From Rodentolepis nana (Eukaryota > Platyhelminthes > Cestoda > Cyclophyllidea > Hymenolepididae): 11,754 bases of DNA. Positions 745 through 11,752 of the stretch are shown here, one piece after another. Below the pieces are notes generated by a model. The model was not told where the DNA came from, did not search any database, and worked only from the letters and a program-made list of their open reading frames with translations. The DNA is taken from NCBI GenBank assembly GCA_900617975.1, contig UZAE01001731.1, positions 1 through 11,754 on the forward strand. Direction: 5' to 3'. Position 1 is the stretch's first letter. Every line of letters begins with the position of its first letter. The position numbers and the translations under genes are program-made.

Positions 745-1031
745 CTTTATTTATATCAACTAGAGGACTTCACAGAGAGGAGAAGGAACATGAAGGTGGG
801 AAAAATTCGAGAGGGGGAACAGAAAAGTGATTCAAGGATGTAAAAGAGACAGACAAACACAAAGGCAGAGAAAAGGTAAGGTGAGTACTGTGAAAGTAGT
901 GGAATATGGCTTACAGTGTAGTCATGGTAGTTTGAAGCCAGAAATCAATAGCTGGTTTAAAGACTTTTATTGTCGTATGAGTATACCTTGCCCAAGGAGC
1001 ACCACGAGGAGGTAAGTCCATATAACATTCA
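745..1031 (-). mobile_element. SINE-like retroposon, copy A (internally deleted)
   Basis: This is a minus-strand copy of the family seen at 1341-1666 and 2866-3188. Its 5' end is near 1031 and its tail near 745, where the minus strand reads GATATAAATAAAG. It matches B and C through the body, including the antisense block AGGTGAGTACTGT, but lacks about 45 bp just before the tail, the part around CTGCCATTT in B, C and D. I could not find a target-site duplication, so it is probably older or rearranged. The 62-codon open frame on the plus strand (827-1015) is antisense to the element and not a gene. Homology to the other copies is plain to the eye; the exact ends are uncertain by several bases. 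Confidence 0.75.
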
Positions 1032-1330: not shown

Positions 1331-1340
1331 TTCTAAATAT
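1331..1340. repeat. Target-site duplication, left of copy B
   Basis: TTCTAAATAT lies directly before the 5' end of retroposon copy B and recurs exactly at 1667-1676, directly after its A-rich tail. This is the expected footprint of insertion by target-primed reverse transcription. Confidence 0.85.
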
Positions 1341-1666
1341 GGGAAGCGTGATCGACTTACCTCCACGTTGTGCACCTTGGGCAACGTATACTCGTACGGC
1401 AAAAAGGTCTATTAACCGGCAGTTGACTTCTGGCTTCAGACTACCATCACTCCACTGTATGTCATATTCGACTACTTCAACAGTACTCACCTCACCTTTT
1501 TTCTACCCTTGTGTCTGTCTCTTTTACATCTTTGAAACACTCTTCTGTCCCCCCCCCCCTCTCGACTTTTTTTTCACTTTGATGTTCCTTCCTCTCTGTG
1601 AAATCTGAAGTCAACTAAAGGGCTAAGTATGACTATCAAAATGCCTGCCATTTGATATAAATAAAA
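1341..1666 (+). mobile_element. SINE-like retroposon, copy B (full length)
   Basis: This 326-bp element is bounded by a perfect 10-bp direct repeat. It starts GGGAAGCGTGATCGACTTACC, which aligns with the start of copy C, and ends CTGCCATTTGATATAAATAAAA, an A-rich tail. At 1455-1494 it matches copy C (2981-3020) at 37 of 40 positions. A C11 run at 1549-1559 is an expansion not present in C. The element has no protein-coding capacity that I trust: frames on both strands are short, and B carries a single-base indel relative to A and C within the antisense frame. I could not make out a convincing tRNA-type box A/box B pair, so the origin of the 5' head is unknown. Confidence 0.88.
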
Positions 1667-1676
1667 TTCTAAATAT
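1667..1676. repeat. Target-site duplication, right of copy B
   Basis: Second exact copy of TTCTAAATAT, directly after the tail of retroposon copy B. It pairs with 1331-1340. Confidence 0.85.
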
Positions 1677-1738
1677 AATTCAAAAATAATATTCCCTTCA
1701 AAAGCAACGTAACAAAAAAAGTTTAAATGAAAATATCA

Positions 1739-1744
1739 TTTATT
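1739..1744 (-). terminator. Polyadenylation signal of the lysine-rich gene
   Basis: AATAAA on the minus strand, about 45 nt beyond the TAA stop at 1789-1791. Its position suits a short 3' UTR and supports the lysine-rich reading frame being a real transcribed gene. Confidence 0.65.
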
Positions 1745-1788
1745 AAGCTCTTAGCCATAAAATCTCATTTTTAATCACCCTTATCATA

Positions 1789-2115
1789 TTATTGCTCCAT
1801 TTCCTCATTCTTATTCTTATTCTTATTCTTATTTATATACTTATTCTTATTCACATACTTTCCCTTTTTACTCTTCTTTTTCCTTGGTTCATTATTTATT
1901 CTTTTATCCTTTTTCTCCTCTAATTTCGCTGCAAACTCTCTTTCCTCATCACTATTTCCCACAGAGACCCGTCGTGCTTCTTGTTTCGTATCTCGCGCCT
2001 TTTTTCGCGCCTGTTTCAGAATCTTCTTTCTGTTCTTGTCCAACGACCTCCTTTCAGATGTGGTCAGTGGTGAGGGTACATTTTTCTCTTCAGTCTTCTT
2101 CTTGCCCTTGGCCAT
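1789..2115 (-). CDS. Small, very basic lysine-rich protein, unknown function
   Basis: I do not recognise this protein. From ATG at 2115 the frame encodes 108 residues. It begins MAKGKKKTEEK, continues with a predicted-helical Lys/Arg/Glu-rich middle (about residues 20-80, including KNRKKILKQARKKARDTKQ) and ends in an Asn-Lys repeat tail encoded by an AATAAG hexanucleotide microsatellite. There is no signal peptide or membrane segment, and the composition suggests a nucleolar or nucleic-acid-binding protein, which is only inference. The frame is open further upstream to an ATG at 2283, but I chose 2115 because its context is AAAATGG and the basic composition starts there; an AG at 2128-2129 could be a weak 3' splice site. 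AATAAA follows about 45 nt after the stop. It could instead be the last exon of a longer gene. Confidence 0.5.
   Translation of the reverse strand: MAKGKKKTEEKNVPSPLTTSERRSLDKNRKKILKQARKKARDTKQEARRVSVGNSDEEREFAAKLEEKKDKRINNEPRKKKSKKGKYVNKNKYINKNKNKNKNEEMEQ
1806..1851. repeat. TTCTTA hexanucleotide microsatellite
   Basis: Imperfect tandem TTCTTA units on the plus strand (AATAAG on the minus strand) lie inside the 3' end of the lysine-rich reading frame. They encode alternating Asn and Lys there, so unit gain or loss keeps the frame. Confidence 0.85.
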
Positions 2116-2853
2116 TTTGGTCAGTTCCTTGGAATTATGACAACGTAGGGAATTGAACCAGAGAAATCCACAATAAATCGATATCTTGTGAGGATCACAG
2201 GAGTTGGACACGCGATTCCTTCTGGTCGATAAGTACCTTAAAGGGAATTGAACTAAAAAACGTGCTTTTCCAATTAGCTGCATTTTCTTCCAGATATAAA
2301 ATCGTGACTTTTGTAAAATAATTTGTGTCCTTTTTTCGCAGGAGCATAACGTAACAATTTCTTTTTAAGGTGACACTCTGCATTAATTTGAAGTAATGGA
2401 GACTAGTTTCATTCTCTGTAATATATTTGCCCAGTGGATACAGCTAGACCATAGTTAACTTAGGCTGGGGATAGATAGCTCTAAAAGACGGCTTTTGTAG
2501 ATTTATAAGTCTCAAGCCCATTAATTGCCATTTGAAATTCTAAACAATTGATGCTGCTAGTTATTGTCTACGTGGTGAAATTGGAACTGCTGTTTCCTAG
2601 AGAGTATTGGATCTTACCGACCATGGCATCTATCTCCATTGCCAACTCTGATTATTTTCAAAACTGGAGAACGAAATAGATGCGCACTAAGAAAGTAATT
2701 GGTGTGCACATTTTGGGTTGATGACTAATCCTTTCTTACGACAGAAGCTGTAGAAGTCATTCTCCAAGTGAGTGATGCCTTAAAAGTCCAATCTTCCATT
2801 TTTATTTCAGCTTCATTAATTTTTTTACAGATGTAAACTGCTTTCTTTCACTC
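2116..2853. other. Non-coding stretch upstream of the lysine-rich gene
   Basis: I see no supportable gene here. The minus-strand part next to the gene would hold its promoter and 5' leader. The 12-mer AGGGAATTGAAC occurs twice (2147-2158 and 2242-2253); its complement resembles a pol III box B, but no box A partner or tRNA fold is visible. Confidence 0.5.
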
Positions 2854-2865
2854 TATTGGTGATCC
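2854..2865. repeat. Target-site duplication, left of copy C
   Basis: TATTGGTGATCC directly precedes retroposon copy C and recurs exactly at 3189-3200 after its tail. Confidence 0.9.
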
Positions 2866-3188
2866 GGGGTGTGCGATAGACTTTCCTCCACGTGGTACAC
2901 AATGGGTAAGGTATACCCATGCGACAATAAAAGTCTTTAAACCGGAAATTGACTTCTGGCTTCAAACTACCATGACCCCACTGTATGTCATATTCCACTA
3001 CTTCCACAGTACTCACCTTAATTTTTCTCTGCCTTTGTGTTTGTCTATCTCTTTTACATCCTTGAATCACTTTTCTGTTCTCCCGTTCAAATTTGTCTCA
3101 CTTTGTTGCTCCTCCCCCCTGTGACGCCCGAAATCAGGTAAAGGGTTAATGGTAATTATCATAAAGTCTGCCATTTAAAATAAATAAA
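2866..3188 (+). mobile_element. SINE-like retroposon, copy C (full length)
   Basis: This 323-bp element lies between two identical 12-bp direct repeats. It starts GGGGTGTGCGATAGACTTTC and ends CTGCCATTTAAAATAAATAAA, an A/TAAA-rich tail that fixes the orientation as plus. Body sequence is shared with copies A and B, and the last part with copy D. The near-equal length of B and C (326 and 323 bp) and their matching 5' ends argue for a defined full-length short element rather than random 5'-truncated LINE ends. An open frame on the minus strand (2825-3070) is antisense to the element and crosses its boundary, so I do not call it a gene. Confidence 0.9.
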
Positions 3189-3200
3189 TATTGGTGATCC
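3189..3200. repeat. Target-site duplication, right of copy C
   Basis: Second exact copy of TATTGGTGATCC, following the tail of retroposon copy C. It pairs with 2854-2865. Confidence 0.9.
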
Positions 3201-3549: not shown

Positions 3550-3801
3550 GTGCAAATTGACAGAGTGTACCTCACAACCGGCCATCCCTTTTTTGGCCTC
3601 CTCATTTTGTTCACTAGGGTGGCAAAGAGCACGCTACCCCGGGCTTCAAAAAAAGATTCTCAAAAAGCATGCCAGTATAATTCTTTACTCTTCTCAATCT
3701 CAAATAAGTAGAGGTATAGCTTTCCTGAGTTCAGACTGGGCGGATAGCCGCGTTCAAGCCAATCGAGACAAGTAAATTAAGGTAAAACTCCATCCCACAA
3801 G
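3550..3801. other. Non-coding stretch before the mariner element
   Basis: This is a somewhat GC-richer interval with no recognisable protein motif. The open frame at 3557-3775 has no family features and no splice support. Confidence 0.45.
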
Positions 3802-3803
3802 TA

Positions 3804-3833
3804 TTAGGTTGGCAACTAAGTCATTGCCGATTT
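3804..3833 (+). repeat. Mariner left terminal inverted repeat
   Basis: The 30-bp left end starts TTAGGTTGGCAAC after a TA target site. It differs from the right end at its positions 3, 15 and 27 only. Confidence 0.95.
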
Positions 3834-3877
3834 CAAATAAGAAGGCAAATTCGGAATTTTTGCTTAAAAATATAACT

Positions 3878-4921
3878 TTATTCAATTAGATATTGGCCGT
3901 TCTTGTCGATGACCTTTTTCCATCCTTCTGCCAGAGTAAAAATTCCCCGTTCGTAAAATGTCTGGTCTTTGCTATTAATAAACTGAATTAGGTGTGATCC
4001 GACATCATCCGCGTTGTTACAAATTTTACCATTTAAAGAGTTTTGCATGGAACGAAACAAATGGTAATCCGAAGGCGCAAGGTCAGGGCTATATATGGGG
4101 TGGGTGTGACAAAACATCCCAACCCAGTTCCAATAATTTTTGCCGAGTAACCAAAGGTCTGTGGGGCCTTGCGTTATCATGATGGAAAACAACACCCTTC
4201 CGCCGATTTGATAATGCCGGCCGCTTATCTTCAATTGCATCCTTCAGTTTTTCCAGTTGTTCAACATACACATTTGAATTTATCGTTTGGTTCTGCGGCA
4301 TGAGTTCAAAATACAAAATTCCTTTGTGATCCCACCACACTGACAGCATAATCTTTTTTGGTGAATCTCTGCTTTTCATACTGTTTGGGCTGGTTGATCT
4401 TGCTTCACCCATGATCTCTTGCGAGTAACATTGTTATAAACTATTCACTTTTCGTCGCCAGTAACTAGGTTCTTCCTCGGAAATGGATCATTCTCATTGC
4501 GTTTCAGTAGCGGCGAATCACAGATGCTAATCCGTTGCGTCAAATGAATTTCCTTTAACTGGTGAGGGATCCATAAATCAACTTTCTTGACATAACCAAG
4601 GGTTTTTCATTTTTTTTTCAATGCATGTATGCGACACATTGAGCTTCTCTGCAATATCTCGTGTTGCGCTGTGACGATTTGAATCGATAATGGCCTTGAT
4701 ATGGGTTTCATCCACTTCGACTGGGCGGCCAGATCGTTGTGAATTTTTCAGTGAAAAATCACCGCAACGAAATCTTTCAAACCAATTTCGACACTGCCTT
4801 TCTTCCTCACGGCTTCATCTCCATATACGGCACATAACTTCTTTTGTGTTTGCGATGCGTTCTTGCCTTTTCGGAAGTAATACAATAAAATGTGTCGGAA
4901 GTGCACGTCGTGTTCTTTCAT
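3878..4921 (-). pseudogene. Mariner transposase, broken by frameshifts and stops
   Basis: This would be a cut-and-paste transposase of about 345 residues. The start codon is at 4921-4919 and the final TAA at 3880-3878, overlapping an AATAAA. Recognisable in order are the N-terminal region with QTQKKLCAVYGDEAV, a helix-turn-helix-like stretch (about 4610-4690, IAEKLNVSHTCIEKK), a TGDEK segment followed by TGA where Trp is expected, SVWWD with the first catalytic Asp (4331-4329), HHDNARPH with the second (4178-4176), and SPDLAPSDYHLF with the third (4069-4067). Breaks seen: a frameshift near 4816, another in the A-run near 4612, a one-base shift near 4355, at least two internal stops, and a 4-base excess (about 4088-4099) between the second and third Asp. 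Removing those 4 bases gives exactly 34 residues between them. It cannot make active protein. Confidence 0.95.
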
Positions 4922-5073
4922 TTTTAAATTGGGATAAAAACAAAACTAAAGAACTAAACAAAAAAAATTTTTTACTAATTAACCTAGAACCCCATACAGT
5001 AAGAAAAAAATATAGGTTAGATGCTCTGGCCACGTTAACAAAACAAAAGAAAGTATAGAGTGAATCCGTCAAC

Positions 5074-5103
5074 AAAACGGCAATGACTAAGTTGCCAACC
5101 CAA
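5074..5103 (-). repeat. Mariner right terminal inverted repeat
   Basis: The complement of the last 30 bp starts TTGGGTTGGCAAC and matches the left end at 27 of 30 positions. A TA target duplication follows at 5104-5105. Confidence 0.95.
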
Positions 5104-5105
5104 TA

Positions 5106-8100
5106 GTTACGAACACTAAAAAGCACCTTGAAAGGGTGAAATTATATGAATTGCAATAGCAGCGAAAACATTCATTACTATTAAAAGTTTGAAAATTCGC
5201 TCAATATGATACTTGCTGGACAACGTCTTGTTAATTTCTGTTTATAAATGCATCGAAGTCTAGTGTTAGTTTCGAAGTTCAAACCATCCTCGAAGCCTCA
5301 GTAACACGTTACCTTTACACAGTTGCCAATTATTCAAGGCAGAACTTAGTTAACGTTCCGGCGAATACGAAGTGGATGAAAGAAGCAGTAAATTCAAATT
5401 GTATTGGTTTAGACATCCAATTGCTTAATTCCACCAAGATGTTAGCCCCAATGTATTCAAATTTTAAGAAAGGAGAGTAACCGGTTAAGGATTATTGAGA
5501 TAACAGATAAAGGAGCTTTGTTTTAGGGATTCTCTTAGGCATAGTTCTTAAACAAGAGTTAATTTAATATAGTACTCTCCGTACCTTAAACCTAAGAGAG
5601 GATGCATAATGGTAGCAATTCGGGAATTTGCTACGAATGTATAATTCAGGGAATAACAAGAGTTGACAAGGCGATCTTAGAATTCGTTTGCGGAGCAACG
5701 TTTAAAGGGGAGTGTGGTCACAGCTGATGTAGACAAATGAGGTCACAGTGAGTTCTCAGTAGAGGCTCGTACCAGATGGCTAAAAGTCAAGTGAACAAAA
5801 TTTCTAAGTGGAAGAAATGTGAGAGAGAGATAAATCGGATTAATTTTATTGATGTAATTTCACGTTTTTGAGTGTGATAATGGTAAACTCAAGGGAGTTT
5901 CTTCTCTCTAAGTAATTCTGTTGCAATTCTTTTAGCGGAGGAGAAATTTGTTCCTTGGTACTTAGGTTTCGTCAAGTGCGGTCTTGTAATGGCCAGAAGT
6001 ACGTCAAAACTCCAGCAGTATAATCATTTCAATAGGCAAACTAGTGTTAAGTTTGGAGGTATTCCAATTTGGAATTAATGACCTTCATAAAGTCGAACAG
6101 AGTTTAACAGACTATTCAAAATTAACTATCTACTTTTGCTGTCACCTGAAAGAGCATAAGCGATGTAAATTGGCAATCTTCCGCGTTTTGTTAATAAAAT
6201 ACCACTTTCAAATCAAATTTCAATTATCATGCAGTTTCGATTATGAAAGCAATACCGAATCGCTTTTTTTTATGCCCTAAATATTAAGTGTGAAAATTGA
6301 GCATCTTGCTCTTATTAAAGTGATGAGATAAATGGGCGTCAATTGGAGTACACGAAATTTTATTCACACATGCAACGATGATATAATGCTGGAAATGCGG
6401 AAGCCAACTACTACGCAGCAGGACAGTAGAAACCTGCTAGACGCAATTACTGCAAGGCGTATTAGAAATTCACGCTTGGCCCGACCAGACCAATGAAATC
6501 CCAATCCAACAGCGTTTGATTTTTCCTTTACTTATCAGACGGTGAACTGAGAGTTCTTTAAAAGTGGAGAGACAAATAAACCCACCATAGTCTGAACATA
6601 GTCAAATTGTGTACATATTTACTGGATTGTCGAAAGTTGGCTAATTTTAAGCATGTTTTTAGATTTAATCCCCATAAGCAAAACAATTTAAGTATTGAAT
6701 AGATTCCAGTTGGATTTGTCAGAAGAGCCTTAGAAATTCCAATTTGTGCACATTAAGATAAAGTTAAATTACCCCCGTTCGGTTATGATGAGCTGGTACG
6801 CCAATCAGATTGCCGGCTTATTGGCCAATCACGTTTTGCCGTAGGCAATATTGCGCCAAATAGGCACTGCCAGCCGACGTGCCACGAAAGGGATTTGAAA
6901 TTTGTAAGTCGGGCAGTCACACGGATCAATAGCTGGATGGCATCTGCAAGTTTTCAGATGAAGCGCTAATCCAGATGCGAAATTTTGTAATGTGGCAAGG
7001 AAACATTCCGGCAAAAAAATACTTTGTTCGGATCCAGATGAAGAAAAAAACGACATTGTTCGAAGTTAAATATAGTGACCTAATTGTAATTAATAACCCA
7101 GCTGAAATTGGCTTTTTTCGCAGTAAAATTAATAGACGTTTCGTAATACAGGAGTCACACTTTAAGGAGGAGCAACCAAGCACATAAGGAGGTCAAGATA
7201 TCTCATTTTAAGAGGGGGTATAGCGAATGTAGGAGGTCCTGAAGAACCATATTTATTTTTCTGAGCTTCATGATTACCAAATGAAATAGTTTTCATTATA
7301 AAGCTTGATGTCGTAGTCCTCTTCATTTGGGATGTCTAGAAGCCATGATTAGATATCTTGCTATGTTCATTTCACATAAATTTTGTGGCACCTATTTACT
7401 AAGCAAAGGAGTTTGTCAGTTTACAGGTTTTATAATTTCTGATCCACCATTGCTTTCTCACTCTTATTTGCCAAGATGGTGACATTATATTTTTTCAAAG
7501 AGGATGCAGAATTTTCAAAGGATTCAAAAACCAGTTCCTGTTTAATGCCTGCCCGAAATTGGCTTAATATATTTGGGTTAGATAAGATTGAGCTAACATC
7601 CTAGCCAATACCATGTCTTTTAGGTCAGATGCGCCTATGACCCTAGTATTTACTTAACGAGGTAGTATTGCAGATTACCTTAATCGCGTAGCCGAAGGGG
7701 TGAGTCATCCTCGAGGACAAAGACGTGCCCTAACGGGTGTGGCGGCGTGCTGATTCCGGAAATAAATACATTAGCTAAGAAAATCGTTGACATGGTACCA
7801 TTCATGAAGCTAGAAGCCAAGTCATTAAAACGAGATATAAACTCCAAGTGAGGAATAAGAAATCCTGAGTGAATGTAGAAAACGCAAACTAAACAAACAC
7901 TAAACACAAGACTGAAGAATCTTAAAAATGTCGCATTTAAAATTTTCGAAAATAGCAATTTTTTAAAATTGCATCATTCGTCCTCTATAATCAAAAAAGC
8001 AAGTACTACTTTAAGGGAATTGTGTGGGGAGAAAGAAAATCAATAATGACAATATCATGGGTGTCAAGCACTTCAATTACAAGGTTAATCAGTTAGAAAT

Positions 8101-9505: not shown

Positions 9506-9516
9506 GGATTATGTAT
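9506..9516. repeat. Target-site duplication, left of copy D
   Basis: GGATTATGTAT lies directly before the retroposon fragment and recurs exactly at 9596-9606. The last T may belong to the element tail. Confidence 0.8.
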
Positions 9517-9595
9517 TTATTCATCTCAAATGGCAGGATTTATGATATTTATCATTAGCCCTTAATCTTTTACTTTAGCTTCCCCCAAGAGGGGA
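9517..9595 (-). mobile_element. SINE-like retroposon, copy D (5'-truncated)
   Basis: This 79-bp minus-strand insertion carries only the 3' end of the family: on the plus strand CTCAAATGGCAGG and then a match to copy C through the CATTAGCCCTT block. Its tail on the minus strand reads CTGCCATTTGAGATGAATAA. Exact 11-bp direct repeats flank it, so the truncation happened at insertion rather than by later deletion, as in target-primed reverse transcription driven by a LINE. Confidence 0.8.
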
Positions 9596-9606
9596 GGATT
9601 ATGTAT
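9596..9606. repeat. Target-site duplication, right of copy D
   Basis: Second exact copy of GGATTATGTAT. It pairs with 9506-9516. Confidence 0.8.
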
Positions 9607-10182: not shown

Positions 10183-11476
10183 ATGTCAGATCAGCAAACC
10201 AAACGTCTACATTTTGTTTGTGGTTCTTACGACGGAACAGTATTTGCCATGTCTTATGAACCCGCAAAAGGTCAAGACAGTGGCCCATCTAGACTGAAAG
10301 CTGAGTTTATTGATCCTGAGGCACATACTGGTCCTGTTACAGCTCTTGCTGTATGTGGAGATACTGTTGCATCGGGGAGTGGTGATGAAGCCATTCAGGT
10401 ATATTTAATATATTTTGTCGCAATTTTCGTTCTTAATTCATTCACAAAATTCCCTTTATGGAATGTAGCTATTTTCTGTTTCTCAACGTCATCGGATGGG
10501 GTGTCTGGAGTTTCATACCGGCACAATTCGTCACTTGATATTTGCGGACTCCCGTCATATTCTCAGTTCCGGGGAAGACTCATGTATCGCGATTTGGCGT
10601 TGTAGTGGAAGCGCTAAAATCACTCAGAATTCTCATAAGTGGCAGTGCATTCGTCAGATGCGTCGCCACAAGGCTTCTATTAGAGCTATGACTCTACATC
10701 CCTCAAAGCGTCTTGCCTTCAGTATTGCTGACAGTGATGGCGACCATACCTTGAGAATCTGGTCTTTAACTCGTGGCCGCCAAGCCTATACCACTCGCCT
10801 TCGAGCGTTAAACGCCGAGGGAGCATCAAATATCTCAGTTTTTAAAGAGGGATCTCATCATTTTCTCTTTGTTCAGGTTGCTACCGCCACATCTCACCGT
10901 CTAGATGTTCTTGATCTGAACCACGTTTCACATAAGGCAATATTTTCAGCTCGATTTCCAGTTCTTCTTTCTCAGCCTCCTGTCGTTTTCCATGTGGACG
11001 AGGATTGTATTTACCTTCTCGTGGGAATCGGAAGCCTCTTAAGAGCCTACAAATGCCAAATCGGTGGAAGTAAAATGGAAGCGATTGCCGAGAGTCGTAT
11101 TCAAGGGAAAAGGTTTAAATTTTTGAAGGCTTTGTCATCTCACGAGATTGGAAAATTGATTGCCATGGTGACGTCGGATGCTGATGGCTCCTATGTAAGG
11201 GGATACATTTTGGACTTCGAGTTCATTAAGGCGAAGTCAGATGGAGATAAGTCACTTCCTTCACTAGGCTTGAAGCCAGTCTTTACCTATGACGTTCCTG
11301 GAATTAGAATCACTCAGGCAGATGCCGTTTGGACTAATCCTAGTGAGGAAAATGAAGAAGATGAGATTATTTTACGGGACGTTGAATTGGACGGCAATGA
11401 TGAAGAATCAGATGAAACCTCGGATGTTTCAGTAGAAGAGGATCTTAATGGTGCGTCTGAGTCTGATGAAAACTAA
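10183..11476 (+). CDS. PAK1IP1: WD40 protein of the MAK11/PAK1IP1 family
   Basis: Two exons (10183-10398 and 10469-11476) encode 407 residues. MAK11 (yeast) and PAK1IP1 (animals) are nucleolar WD40 proteins needed for assembly of the 60S ribosomal subunit; the animal protein was also described as a PAK1 kinase inhibitor. Visible WD-type repeats: residues about 12-46 (VCGSYDGTVFAM), 48-76 (HTGPVTALAV ... ASGSGDEAIQLFSV, spanning the splice), 88-117 (HTGTIRHLIFADSRHILSSG, ending IAIW) and 139-172 (HKASIRAMTLHPSKRLAFS, ending LRIW). The order of GDEAIQ, MGCLEFHTGTI, SSGEDSCIAIW and LHPSKRLA is typical of the family. Later blades are divergent. The C-terminal 46 residues are strongly acidic (Glu, Asp, Ser), common in nucleolar factors. 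Length is near the usual 380-400. The orthology is my reading of motifs, not a search. TATAAA at 11504-11509 may be a weak polyadenylation signal. Confidence 0.85.
10399..10468 (+). other. Intron of the WD40 gene (70 nt)
   Basis: Donor CAG|GTATAT and acceptor GGAATGTAG|CTATTT give a phase 0 join that reads GDEAIQ-LFSVSQRHR-MGCLEFH. The spacing across this junction matches the family exactly. A downstream ATG at 10496 is internal, not a start. Confidence 0.85.
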
Positions 11477-11733
11477 GCTGGAGATTTTTGTAATTCTTGT
11501 ATATATAAACAGACTGTAAATGCATTGTTTCTGTTTTACGTAACTCGCATTATCTCTCTTGATTAAGGTGCACTGATATTTTCCTTTATCGCTGTCTGCT
11601 CTAGATAGTACTTCAGGAAACATTCAATATTCAACGTAAAATTAAGTTCATTTCTAAATACCTTAAGGAAATTACACGGTGTATTGGGATTCACTCTCAG
11701 TCATCTATCTATTGTAATGCACCTTGGGGTTTA
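11477..11733. other. 3' UTR and flank of the WD40 gene
   Basis: No AATAAA is visible downstream of the stop; TATAAA at 11504-11509 is the best variant, with T-rich sequence after it. I see no further gene before the G-run. Confidence 0.45.
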
Positions 11734-11752
11734 GGGGGGGGGGGGGGGGGGG
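11734..11752. repeat. G19 homopolymer at the window edge
   Basis: Nineteen consecutive G residues, then CG, end the window. Such a run is unusual in this AT-rich DNA and may mark a place where the assembly is unreliable. Confidence 0.9.

What the first reader, a model, noticed from the sequence alone, without database searches (positions are those of the whole stretch)
1331..3200. A short retroposon family with perfect target-site duplications
Two full-length elements, B (326 bp) and C (323 bp), share their 5' start, body and TAAA-type tail, and each lies between exact direct repeats of different sequence (TTCTAAATAT; TATTGGTGATCC). With copy A and the truncated copy D, four copies fall within 9 kb. 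The 5' head does not look like a tRNA, and I cannot match the consensus to a SINE I know. Four copies in under 12 kb implies a high genome copy number.
Basis: partly seen in the sequence, partly recalled or inferred. Interest (0 to 1): 0.78.

Follow-up and report, generated by a model that had tools for sequence, protein, structure and literature searches.

The report
Tapeworm jumping element headed by ribozyme
A short mobile DNA element present in many copies in the dwarf tapeworm genome begins with what looks like a self-cutting RNA (an HDV-like ribozyme) and appears to borrow the copying machinery of a longer element that starts and ends the same way.

Summary
B (1341-1666, 326 bp) and C (2866-3188, 323 bp) are full-length copies of one dispersed retroposon, each with an exact target-site duplication. 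The genome is Rodentolepis (Hymenolepis) nana. The unrecognised head is an HDV-like self-cleaving ribozyme fold that starts at the element's first base. A 37-nt piece of it occurs 13,719 times in 107 Mb (up to 3 mismatches; reversed control 0). The partner is a LINE (endonuclease, RT, RNase H) with the same ribozyme at its start and the same ~70-nt tail. The short element is LINE head (1-~97), ~150 nt not found in the LINE parts sampled, and LINE tail. D is not this element but a 79-bp LINE end with its own 11-bp duplication; A is decayed. It works like a ribozyme-headed SIDE (R2Dwi_SIDE of flies, NARTc/RIME of trypanosomes), not a Pol III SINE. The head varies half as much as the middle, which suggests constraint. 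Cleavage is inferred; compensatory changes were not seen. B and C have stem mismatches and are probably dead. Paper searches listed no tapeworm case.

The parts
1331..1340 (.). Left target-site duplication of B (TTCTAAATAT)
   Evidence: sequence
1341..1666 (+). Short element copy B, full length, 326 bp
1341..1412 (+). HDV-like ribozyme head of B (decayed: mismatches in P1); the element starts at ribozyme position 1
   Evidence: Rfam RF02682 26.1 bits, model 1-74 of 74, E 0.19, below the gathering score of 44; alignment
1591..1666 (+). Part of B shared with the partner LINE's 3' end
   Evidence: 79% over 77 nt to the L064 3' end
1667..1676 (.). Right target-site duplication of B
   Evidence: sequence
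2854..2865 (.). Left target-site duplication of C (TATTGGTGATCC)
   Evidence: sequence
2866..3188 (+). Short element copy C, full length, 323 bp
2866..2937 (+). Ribozyme-derived head of C, decayed; Rfam reports nothing here at E <= 5
   Evidence: alignment; not listed
3141..3188 (+). Part of C shared with the partner LINE's 3' end
   Evidence: 90% over 50 nt (3141-3190) to the L064 3' end
3189..3200 (.). Right target-site duplication of C
   Evidence: sequence
768..1021 (-). Copy A: decayed copy of the short element, first ~10 nt and most of the 3' part missing
   Evidence: 84% over 258 nt to consensus 11-262
9517..9595 (-). D: 79-bp 5'-truncated copy of the partner LINE's 3' end (not a copy of the short element)
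   Evidence: 92% over 89 nt (9509-9597) to the L064 LINE 3' end
9506..9516 (.). Target-site duplication of D, copy 1
   Evidence: sequence
9596..9606 (.). Target-site duplication of D, copy 2
   Evidence: sequence

Best explanation
The family is a non-autonomous, LINE-dependent retroposon with a self-cleaving head (a ribozyme-headed short internally deleted element, SIDE). Proposed cycle: (1) an insertion is read through from a neighbouring promoter; (2) the HDV-like ribozyme folds and cuts just before its first G, freeing an RNA whose 5' end is the exact element end; (3) the protein of the partner LINE, which carries the same head and the same ~70-nt tail, recognises that tail; (4) target-primed reverse transcription copies the RNA into A/T-rich sites, leaving duplications mostly of 10-15 nt and a (TAAA)n tail. 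Shown here: head and tail shared with the LINE, flush 5' boundary, duplications on both elements, ribozyme fold and Rfam match, lower variation in the head. Inferred: cleavage, read-through transcription, use of this LINE's protein.
For: Rfam RF02682: 20 full-model matches in 16 of 18 loci searched, all 20 starting at the element's first base (7) or 2 nt inside it (13); 6 exceed the cut-off of 44 bits, best 45.3 (copy starts). Whole genome: 59 matches at E <= 0.001 among 61 scored of 25,212 first-look candidates, 37 above the cut-off, best 54.5 bits, 0 of 14 control genomes (which element each belongs to was not checked). The HDV-like parts (7-bp P1 with G1-U, 8-bp P2, 3-bp P3, P1.1, 5-bp P4, C in J4/2) can be written on the consensus; 92.9% of cells pair against 30-49% for slid partners, though the structure was written from the consensus, which favours it. 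LINE heads carry the same ribozyme (L069 1349-1418, 37.5 bits; L068 2067-2136, 32.7 bits; both below 44); in L069 it ends 32 nt before the ATG of the endonuclease ORF. LINE 3' ends match the consensus tail at 83-90%. The LINE copy on C4530 has ATATACAGAATTAGT flush with G1 and again after its tail. Head substitutions 0.071 against 0.150 in the middle in 16 incidental full copies, lower in 16 of 16. Two copies with different flanks, L006 and L007, are 99.4% identical, so activity was recent.
Against: No activity was measured. Among 67 distinct heads no pair shows a two-sided (compensatory) change (shuffles: mean 1.6) and the covariation score (0.056) does not exceed shuffles (0.059); the copies are close relatives and mostly dead, so the test is weak, but it adds no support. 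Rfam found nothing in 2 of 18 loci (L036, L043), B scores 26.1 bits and C is not reported. In many copies Rfam's register starts 2 nt inside the element. Of 41 incidental pieces that are neither at a locus end nor tail-only, 17 do not reach the 5' end. The lower variation of the head could partly be mutation bias. Dependence on this LINE rests on shared ends only.
Confidence: 0.86

Rival explanations
1. The head is conserved because it is an internal promoter or protein-binding site (trypanosome Pr77 is described as both promoter and ribozyme), and the ribozyme fold has no role.
For: In trypanosomatids the same 77 nt work as promoter and as ribozyme (PMC4035085, passages). A promoter would also keep the 5' end fixed. 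No compensatory changes were seen.
Against: Stems, loop and the position of the catalytic C of an HDV-like ribozyme are retained in both the LINE and the short element, which a promoter alone would not need.
Confidence: 0.09
2. A classical Pol III SINE (tRNA, 5S or 7SL head) mobilised by a LINE.
For: Length, TAAA tail, copy number, LINE-like tail. Weak A-box-like strings at consensus 28 and 120 (3 mismatches) and a loose B-box-like string at 293 (1 mismatch).
Against: No tRNA, 5S or 7SL match inside the element in 18 loci at E <= 1; no match to GGTTCGANNCC with up to 2 mismatches on either strand; runs of 6 and 7 T in the sense strand would stop Pol III.
Confidence: 0.03
3. The copies are merely 5'-truncated ends of a longer LINE.
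For: True of D and of 3'-only copies such as L029, L050 and L060.
Against: B and C start at the same base, directly after a duplication, as do most of the copies with a duplication (42 of 50 flush); the 72 full copies were picked for reaching the 5' end, so their shared start alone proves little, but 28 of 57 incidental pieces also start within 3 nt. The ~150-nt middle is not in the LINE parts sampled.
Confidence: 0.02

Closest known systems
R2Dwi_SIDE and R2/R1 SIDEs of Drosophila (PMC3414825, passages read)
   Same: 5' HDV-like ribozyme of a LINE, LINE 3' end, and in R2Dwi_SIDE a central stretch (197 bp) with no identity to the LINE; its authors exclude the name SINE because Pol III is not involved.
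   Different: There 529 bp, in rDNA target sites, cleavage shown in vitro. Here ~326 bp, dispersed with varied target sites, thousands of copies, partner with an Exo_endo_phos_2 endonuclease and RNase H.
NARTc / RIME and SIDERs with L1Tc / ingi of trypanosomatids (PMC4035085, passages read)
   Same: Partner LINE with endonuclease, RT, RNase H and a ribozyme in the first 77 nt; the short relatives, also called SIDEs there, keep it; short duplications (7-11 nt).
   Different: NARTc and RIME are described as truncated versions of the LINE and screened by a poly-A track; here the middle is not from the sampled LINE and the tail is TAAA. Pr77 is also a promoter; untested here.
Non-LTR retrozymes of animals (PMC7761336, passages read)
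   Same: Short non-autonomous retroelements with a small ribozyme, likened there to SINEs.
   Different: They carry hammerhead ribozymes and give circular RNAs; here one HDV-like ribozyme per element and nothing that points to circles.
ta-TRIM of taeniid tapeworms (PMC4558846, passages read)
   Same: Small non-autonomous retroelement in tapeworms.
   Different: ta-TRIM is of the LTR type; I saw no terminal repeats here, and the ends are shared with a LINE.

Membership tests
SIDE (ribozyme-headed short internally deleted element) | HDV-like ribozyme at the exact 5' end, shared with an autonomous LINE | tested here: met
   at sequence level:
SIDE (ribozyme-headed short internally deleted element) | 3' end shared with the autonomous LINE | tested here: met
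SIDE (ribozyme-headed short internally deleted element) | Ribozyme self-cleaves | not testable with these tools
   no bench; only fold and Rfam score
SIDE (ribozyme-headed short internally deleted element) | Junctions typical of target-primed reverse transcription | tested here: met
   50 of 69 copies with a duplication, null 0.9%; one LINE copy with a 15-nt duplication
SINE in the strict sense | Head from a Pol III gene (tRNA, 5S, 7SL) with A and B boxes | tested here: not met
   only weak A-like and loose B-like strings
SINE in the strict sense | Pol III transcription | not testable with these tools
   internal T6 and T7 runs speak against it
HDV-like ribozyme family | P1, P2, P3, P1.1, P4 in nested double pseudoknot with catalytic C in J4/2 (layout recalled) | tested here: met
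   Rfam
HDV-like ribozyme family | Compensatory changes in the stems | tested here: inconclusive
   0 of 25 pairs with a change on both sides among 67 distinct rows (71 of 72 short-element heads, L047 left out, plus 2 LINE heads)
L1Tc/ingi clade LINE (for the partner) | Endonuclease, RT and RNase H with a ribozyme head | tested here: met
   PF14529 and PF00075 on one copy, PF00078 on another, PF00075 on a third; ribozyme; a Cys/His cluster read by eye
L1Tc/ingi clade LINE (for the partner) | RT phylogeny places it in that clade | not tested
   no tree built; named non-tapeworm proteins in the list are called transposon BS or X-element

The most novel reading that the evidence does not exclude
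The R. nana genome may hold one of the largest families of HDV-like ribozymes in any animal, more than ten thousand sites that can or recently could cleave, so that insertions in sense orientation in introns and untranslated regions cut host transcripts and shape where the family survives and how genes are processed.
Probability: 0.2. Interest if true: 0.8.

Novelty: new member of a known kind. Interest (0 to 1): 0.6.

Why it matters
HDV-like ribozymes at LINE 5' ends and their short parasites are described in flies and trypanosomes. A dispersed, very abundant pair in a tapeworm brings the same design to another phylum and gives thousands of natural ribozyme variants with known insertion sites. 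It could account for part of the repeats left unclassified in the related H. microstoma (14.8% of its repetitive sequence; PMC7653826, passages). It makes testable whether self-cleavage sets the 5' end of dispersed retroposons, and whether ribozymes inside genes are selected against in one orientation.

Tried and rejected
Pol III SINE: rejected. Truncated LINE ends: rejected for B and C, accepted for D. Covariation as proof of the fold: no two-sided change, so the support rests on the Rfam match, the LINE heads and the lower head variation. Head and tail counts as a measure of truncation: not used, because the four patterns differ in length and in fit to subfamilies (13,719 heads of 37 nt, 8,455 short-element tails of 37 nt, 313 LINE heads of 43 nt, 1,057 LINE tails of 46 nt, each at up to 3 mismatches). 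Long LINE frames reported (1261, 1219, 1350 aa): of the two stretches I fetched, C3599 was N over most of its length and C3997:1-700 wholly N, so those two frames run through N; the third was not looked at. My first sets of incidental copies wrongly held 7 search hits from loci clipped at a contig end or merged with a neighbour; one search repeats the counts without them and replaces them here (one search gave 0.061 against 0.135 and 21 of 22). RT clade not assigned.

Full report
What was claimed and what is there. The window (11,754 bases) is a whole contig, C1731, of a 107.1-Mb genome. Its WD-repeat protein is identical, over the 326 residues searched, to one named Rodentolepis nana on a contig of 11,754 bases, and the nearest named relatives of the genome's COX1 are tapeworms.

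The family. Searches with B and with C scored 40 candidates each of 7,259 and 5,022 first-look candidates. In the 58 loci kept, plus the window, I found 119 pieces, of which 72 were full length by my limits, search hits included. Their consensus is 327 nt. The first base is G in 68 of 72, but these copies were picked for reaching the 5' end. Of 69 copies with usable flanks, 50 have a duplication of a score that arises in 0.9% of pairings of flanks from different copies; 41 of the 50 are 10-15 nt long, 42 end directly before G1 (0-2 nt were allowed) and 43 start with A, though the A-rich tail makes that first A ambiguous. Among 57 incidental pieces (the search hits themselves removed), 28 start within 3 nt of the 5' end, 44 reach the 3' end and 19 do both; 11 are tails only. 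Sixteen incidental full copies average 88% identity to the consensus, while the nearest neighbour of a full copy is at a median 91%; L006 and L007, with different flanks, are 99.4% identical, so the family moved recently.

The head. Rfam with permissive settings puts RF02682, an HDV ribozyme family, on B from its first base, full model, 26.1 bits, E 0.19, below the cut-off; C was not listed. In 18 other loci it made 20 full-model matches in 16 loci (none in L036 and L043), all at the first base or 2 nt inside an element; 6 exceed the cut-off, and RF00094, from hepatitis delta virus, gives 10 weaker matches below its own cut-off. In the whole genome 25,212 candidates passed the first look; of 61 scored, 59 matched and 37 exceeded the cut-off, against 0 of 14 control genomes. 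On the consensus the parts are P1 1-7/32-38 with a G1-U38 wobble, P2 11-18/65-72, P3 19-21/29-31, P1.1 23-24/39-40, P4 45-49/54-58 and C60 in the place of the catalytic C (names and layout recalled). Over 67 distinct heads 92.9% of cells pair, against 30-49% when partners are slid, but the structure was written from the consensus and no pair shows a compensatory change. B and C have mismatches in P1; P1 mismatches have been proposed to explain missing activity in other HDV-like ribozymes (PMC3774820, passages), so neither window copy is likely to be active.

The partner. Several pieces matched only the last ~70 nt. Upstream of three of them (L029, L050, L060) lies the end of a protein with an RNase H motif and a Cys/His cluster, in L029 and L060 broken by stops, then a stop and a short stretch. 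That protein end, from L050, has 2,986 first-look candidates; all 150 scored match at 83% identity or better, its own locus included. One copy (C4665) keeps the RT (PF00078, 134 bits); another (C4530) the endonuclease (PF14529) and RNase H (PF00075) with no RT found across a single N. Upstream of the endonuclease of C4530 and of C2493 stands the ribozyme (37.5 and 32.7 bits, below the cut-off of 44). In C4530 it starts GGGGTGCGCGATAG and ends 32 nt before the ATG; C2493 has lost the stretch with the ATG; C4701 keeps the ORF start and a decayed head that Rfam does not report. C4530 has ATATACAGAATTAGT immediately before G1 and again after its tail. LINE and short element thus share both ends: consensus 1-97 at 87% (L069) and the tail at 83-90%; nothing between matches the sampled LINE parts beyond a few short strings, the best of 18 nt. 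Among named proteins nearest to the RT are those of R. nana and H. microstoma, then spiders, a cockroach and molluscs; the best hit has no name (120 of 756 listed).

D. On the minus strand 9595-9517 matches the LINE 3' end (92%) better than the short element (80%) and lies between two copies of an 11-bp repeat. It is a truncated LINE insertion, and shows in the window itself the kind of event the LINE makes.

How it works. The shared head and tail, the flush 5' boundary and the duplications point to co-transcription with a neighbour, release by self-cleavage, recognition of the tail by the LINE protein and target-primed reverse transcription. The low variation of the head fits: in 16 incidental full copies substitutions per site are 0.071 (0.052-0.093) in the ribozyme, 0.150 (0.128-0.174) in the middle, 0.133 in the middle without its pyrimidine tracts, and 0.095 in the tail, with the head below the middle in 16 of 16. 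In all 72 full copies, search hits included, it is 0.051 against 0.111 and 65 of 72. Activity, transcription and protein use remain inferred.

Place among known things. The design, LINE ribozyme + foreign middle + LINE tail, is that of R2Dwi_SIDE (PMC3414825, passages); the partner resembles L1Tc in domain set and in having the ribozyme in its first ~75 nt (PMC4035085, passages). Differences are the host phylum, the dispersed sites, the copy number (13,719 core matches, LINE heads included; about 4% of the assembly if all were full length) and the TAAA tail. In the H. microstoma genome paper the words SINE, SINEs, ribozyme and ribozymes do not occur, and repeats are left unclassified (PMC7653826, term search and passages); in two other tapeworm papers on mobile elements the word ribozyme does not occur (PMC4558846 and PMC6880638). 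Paper searches listed no title or abstract start describing an HDV-like ribozyme in a tapeworm; the listings are capped and the library lacks most subscription journals.

Noticed in passing
window 3799-5108: A decayed mariner-like DNA transposon: 35-nt inverted ends (3799-3833 / 5074-5108, 89% complementary) around broken frames on the minus strand. The name is my reading of the translation, not a database hit.
   Followed up: no
window 10183-11476: WD-repeat gene with a short intron, related to p21-activated kinase-interacting protein 1; identical to a named R. nana protein.
   Followed up: partly
L037 ~1500, L044 ~1021 and ~2932, L050 ~1826: Runs of extra G directly before the Gs that open the element. 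The window itself ends in a run of G (11733-11752) at a contig end, perhaps the start of another copy.
   Followed up: no
L014 1-400: The LINE-type 3' end occurs there repeatedly in tandem, so the tail can also grow by tandem duplication.
   Followed up: no
L033 1130-1202 (-): A tRNA-like gene (Rfam 48.4 bits) lies about 45 bp upstream of a short-element copy; single case.
   Followed up: no
L070, L071 (C4530, C4701): LINE copies hold a single N where coding sequence is missing, as if the assembler had collapsed the repeat; LINE lengths from this assembly may be unreliable. L066 (C4665) also has a lone n near its RNase H part.
   Followed up: partly
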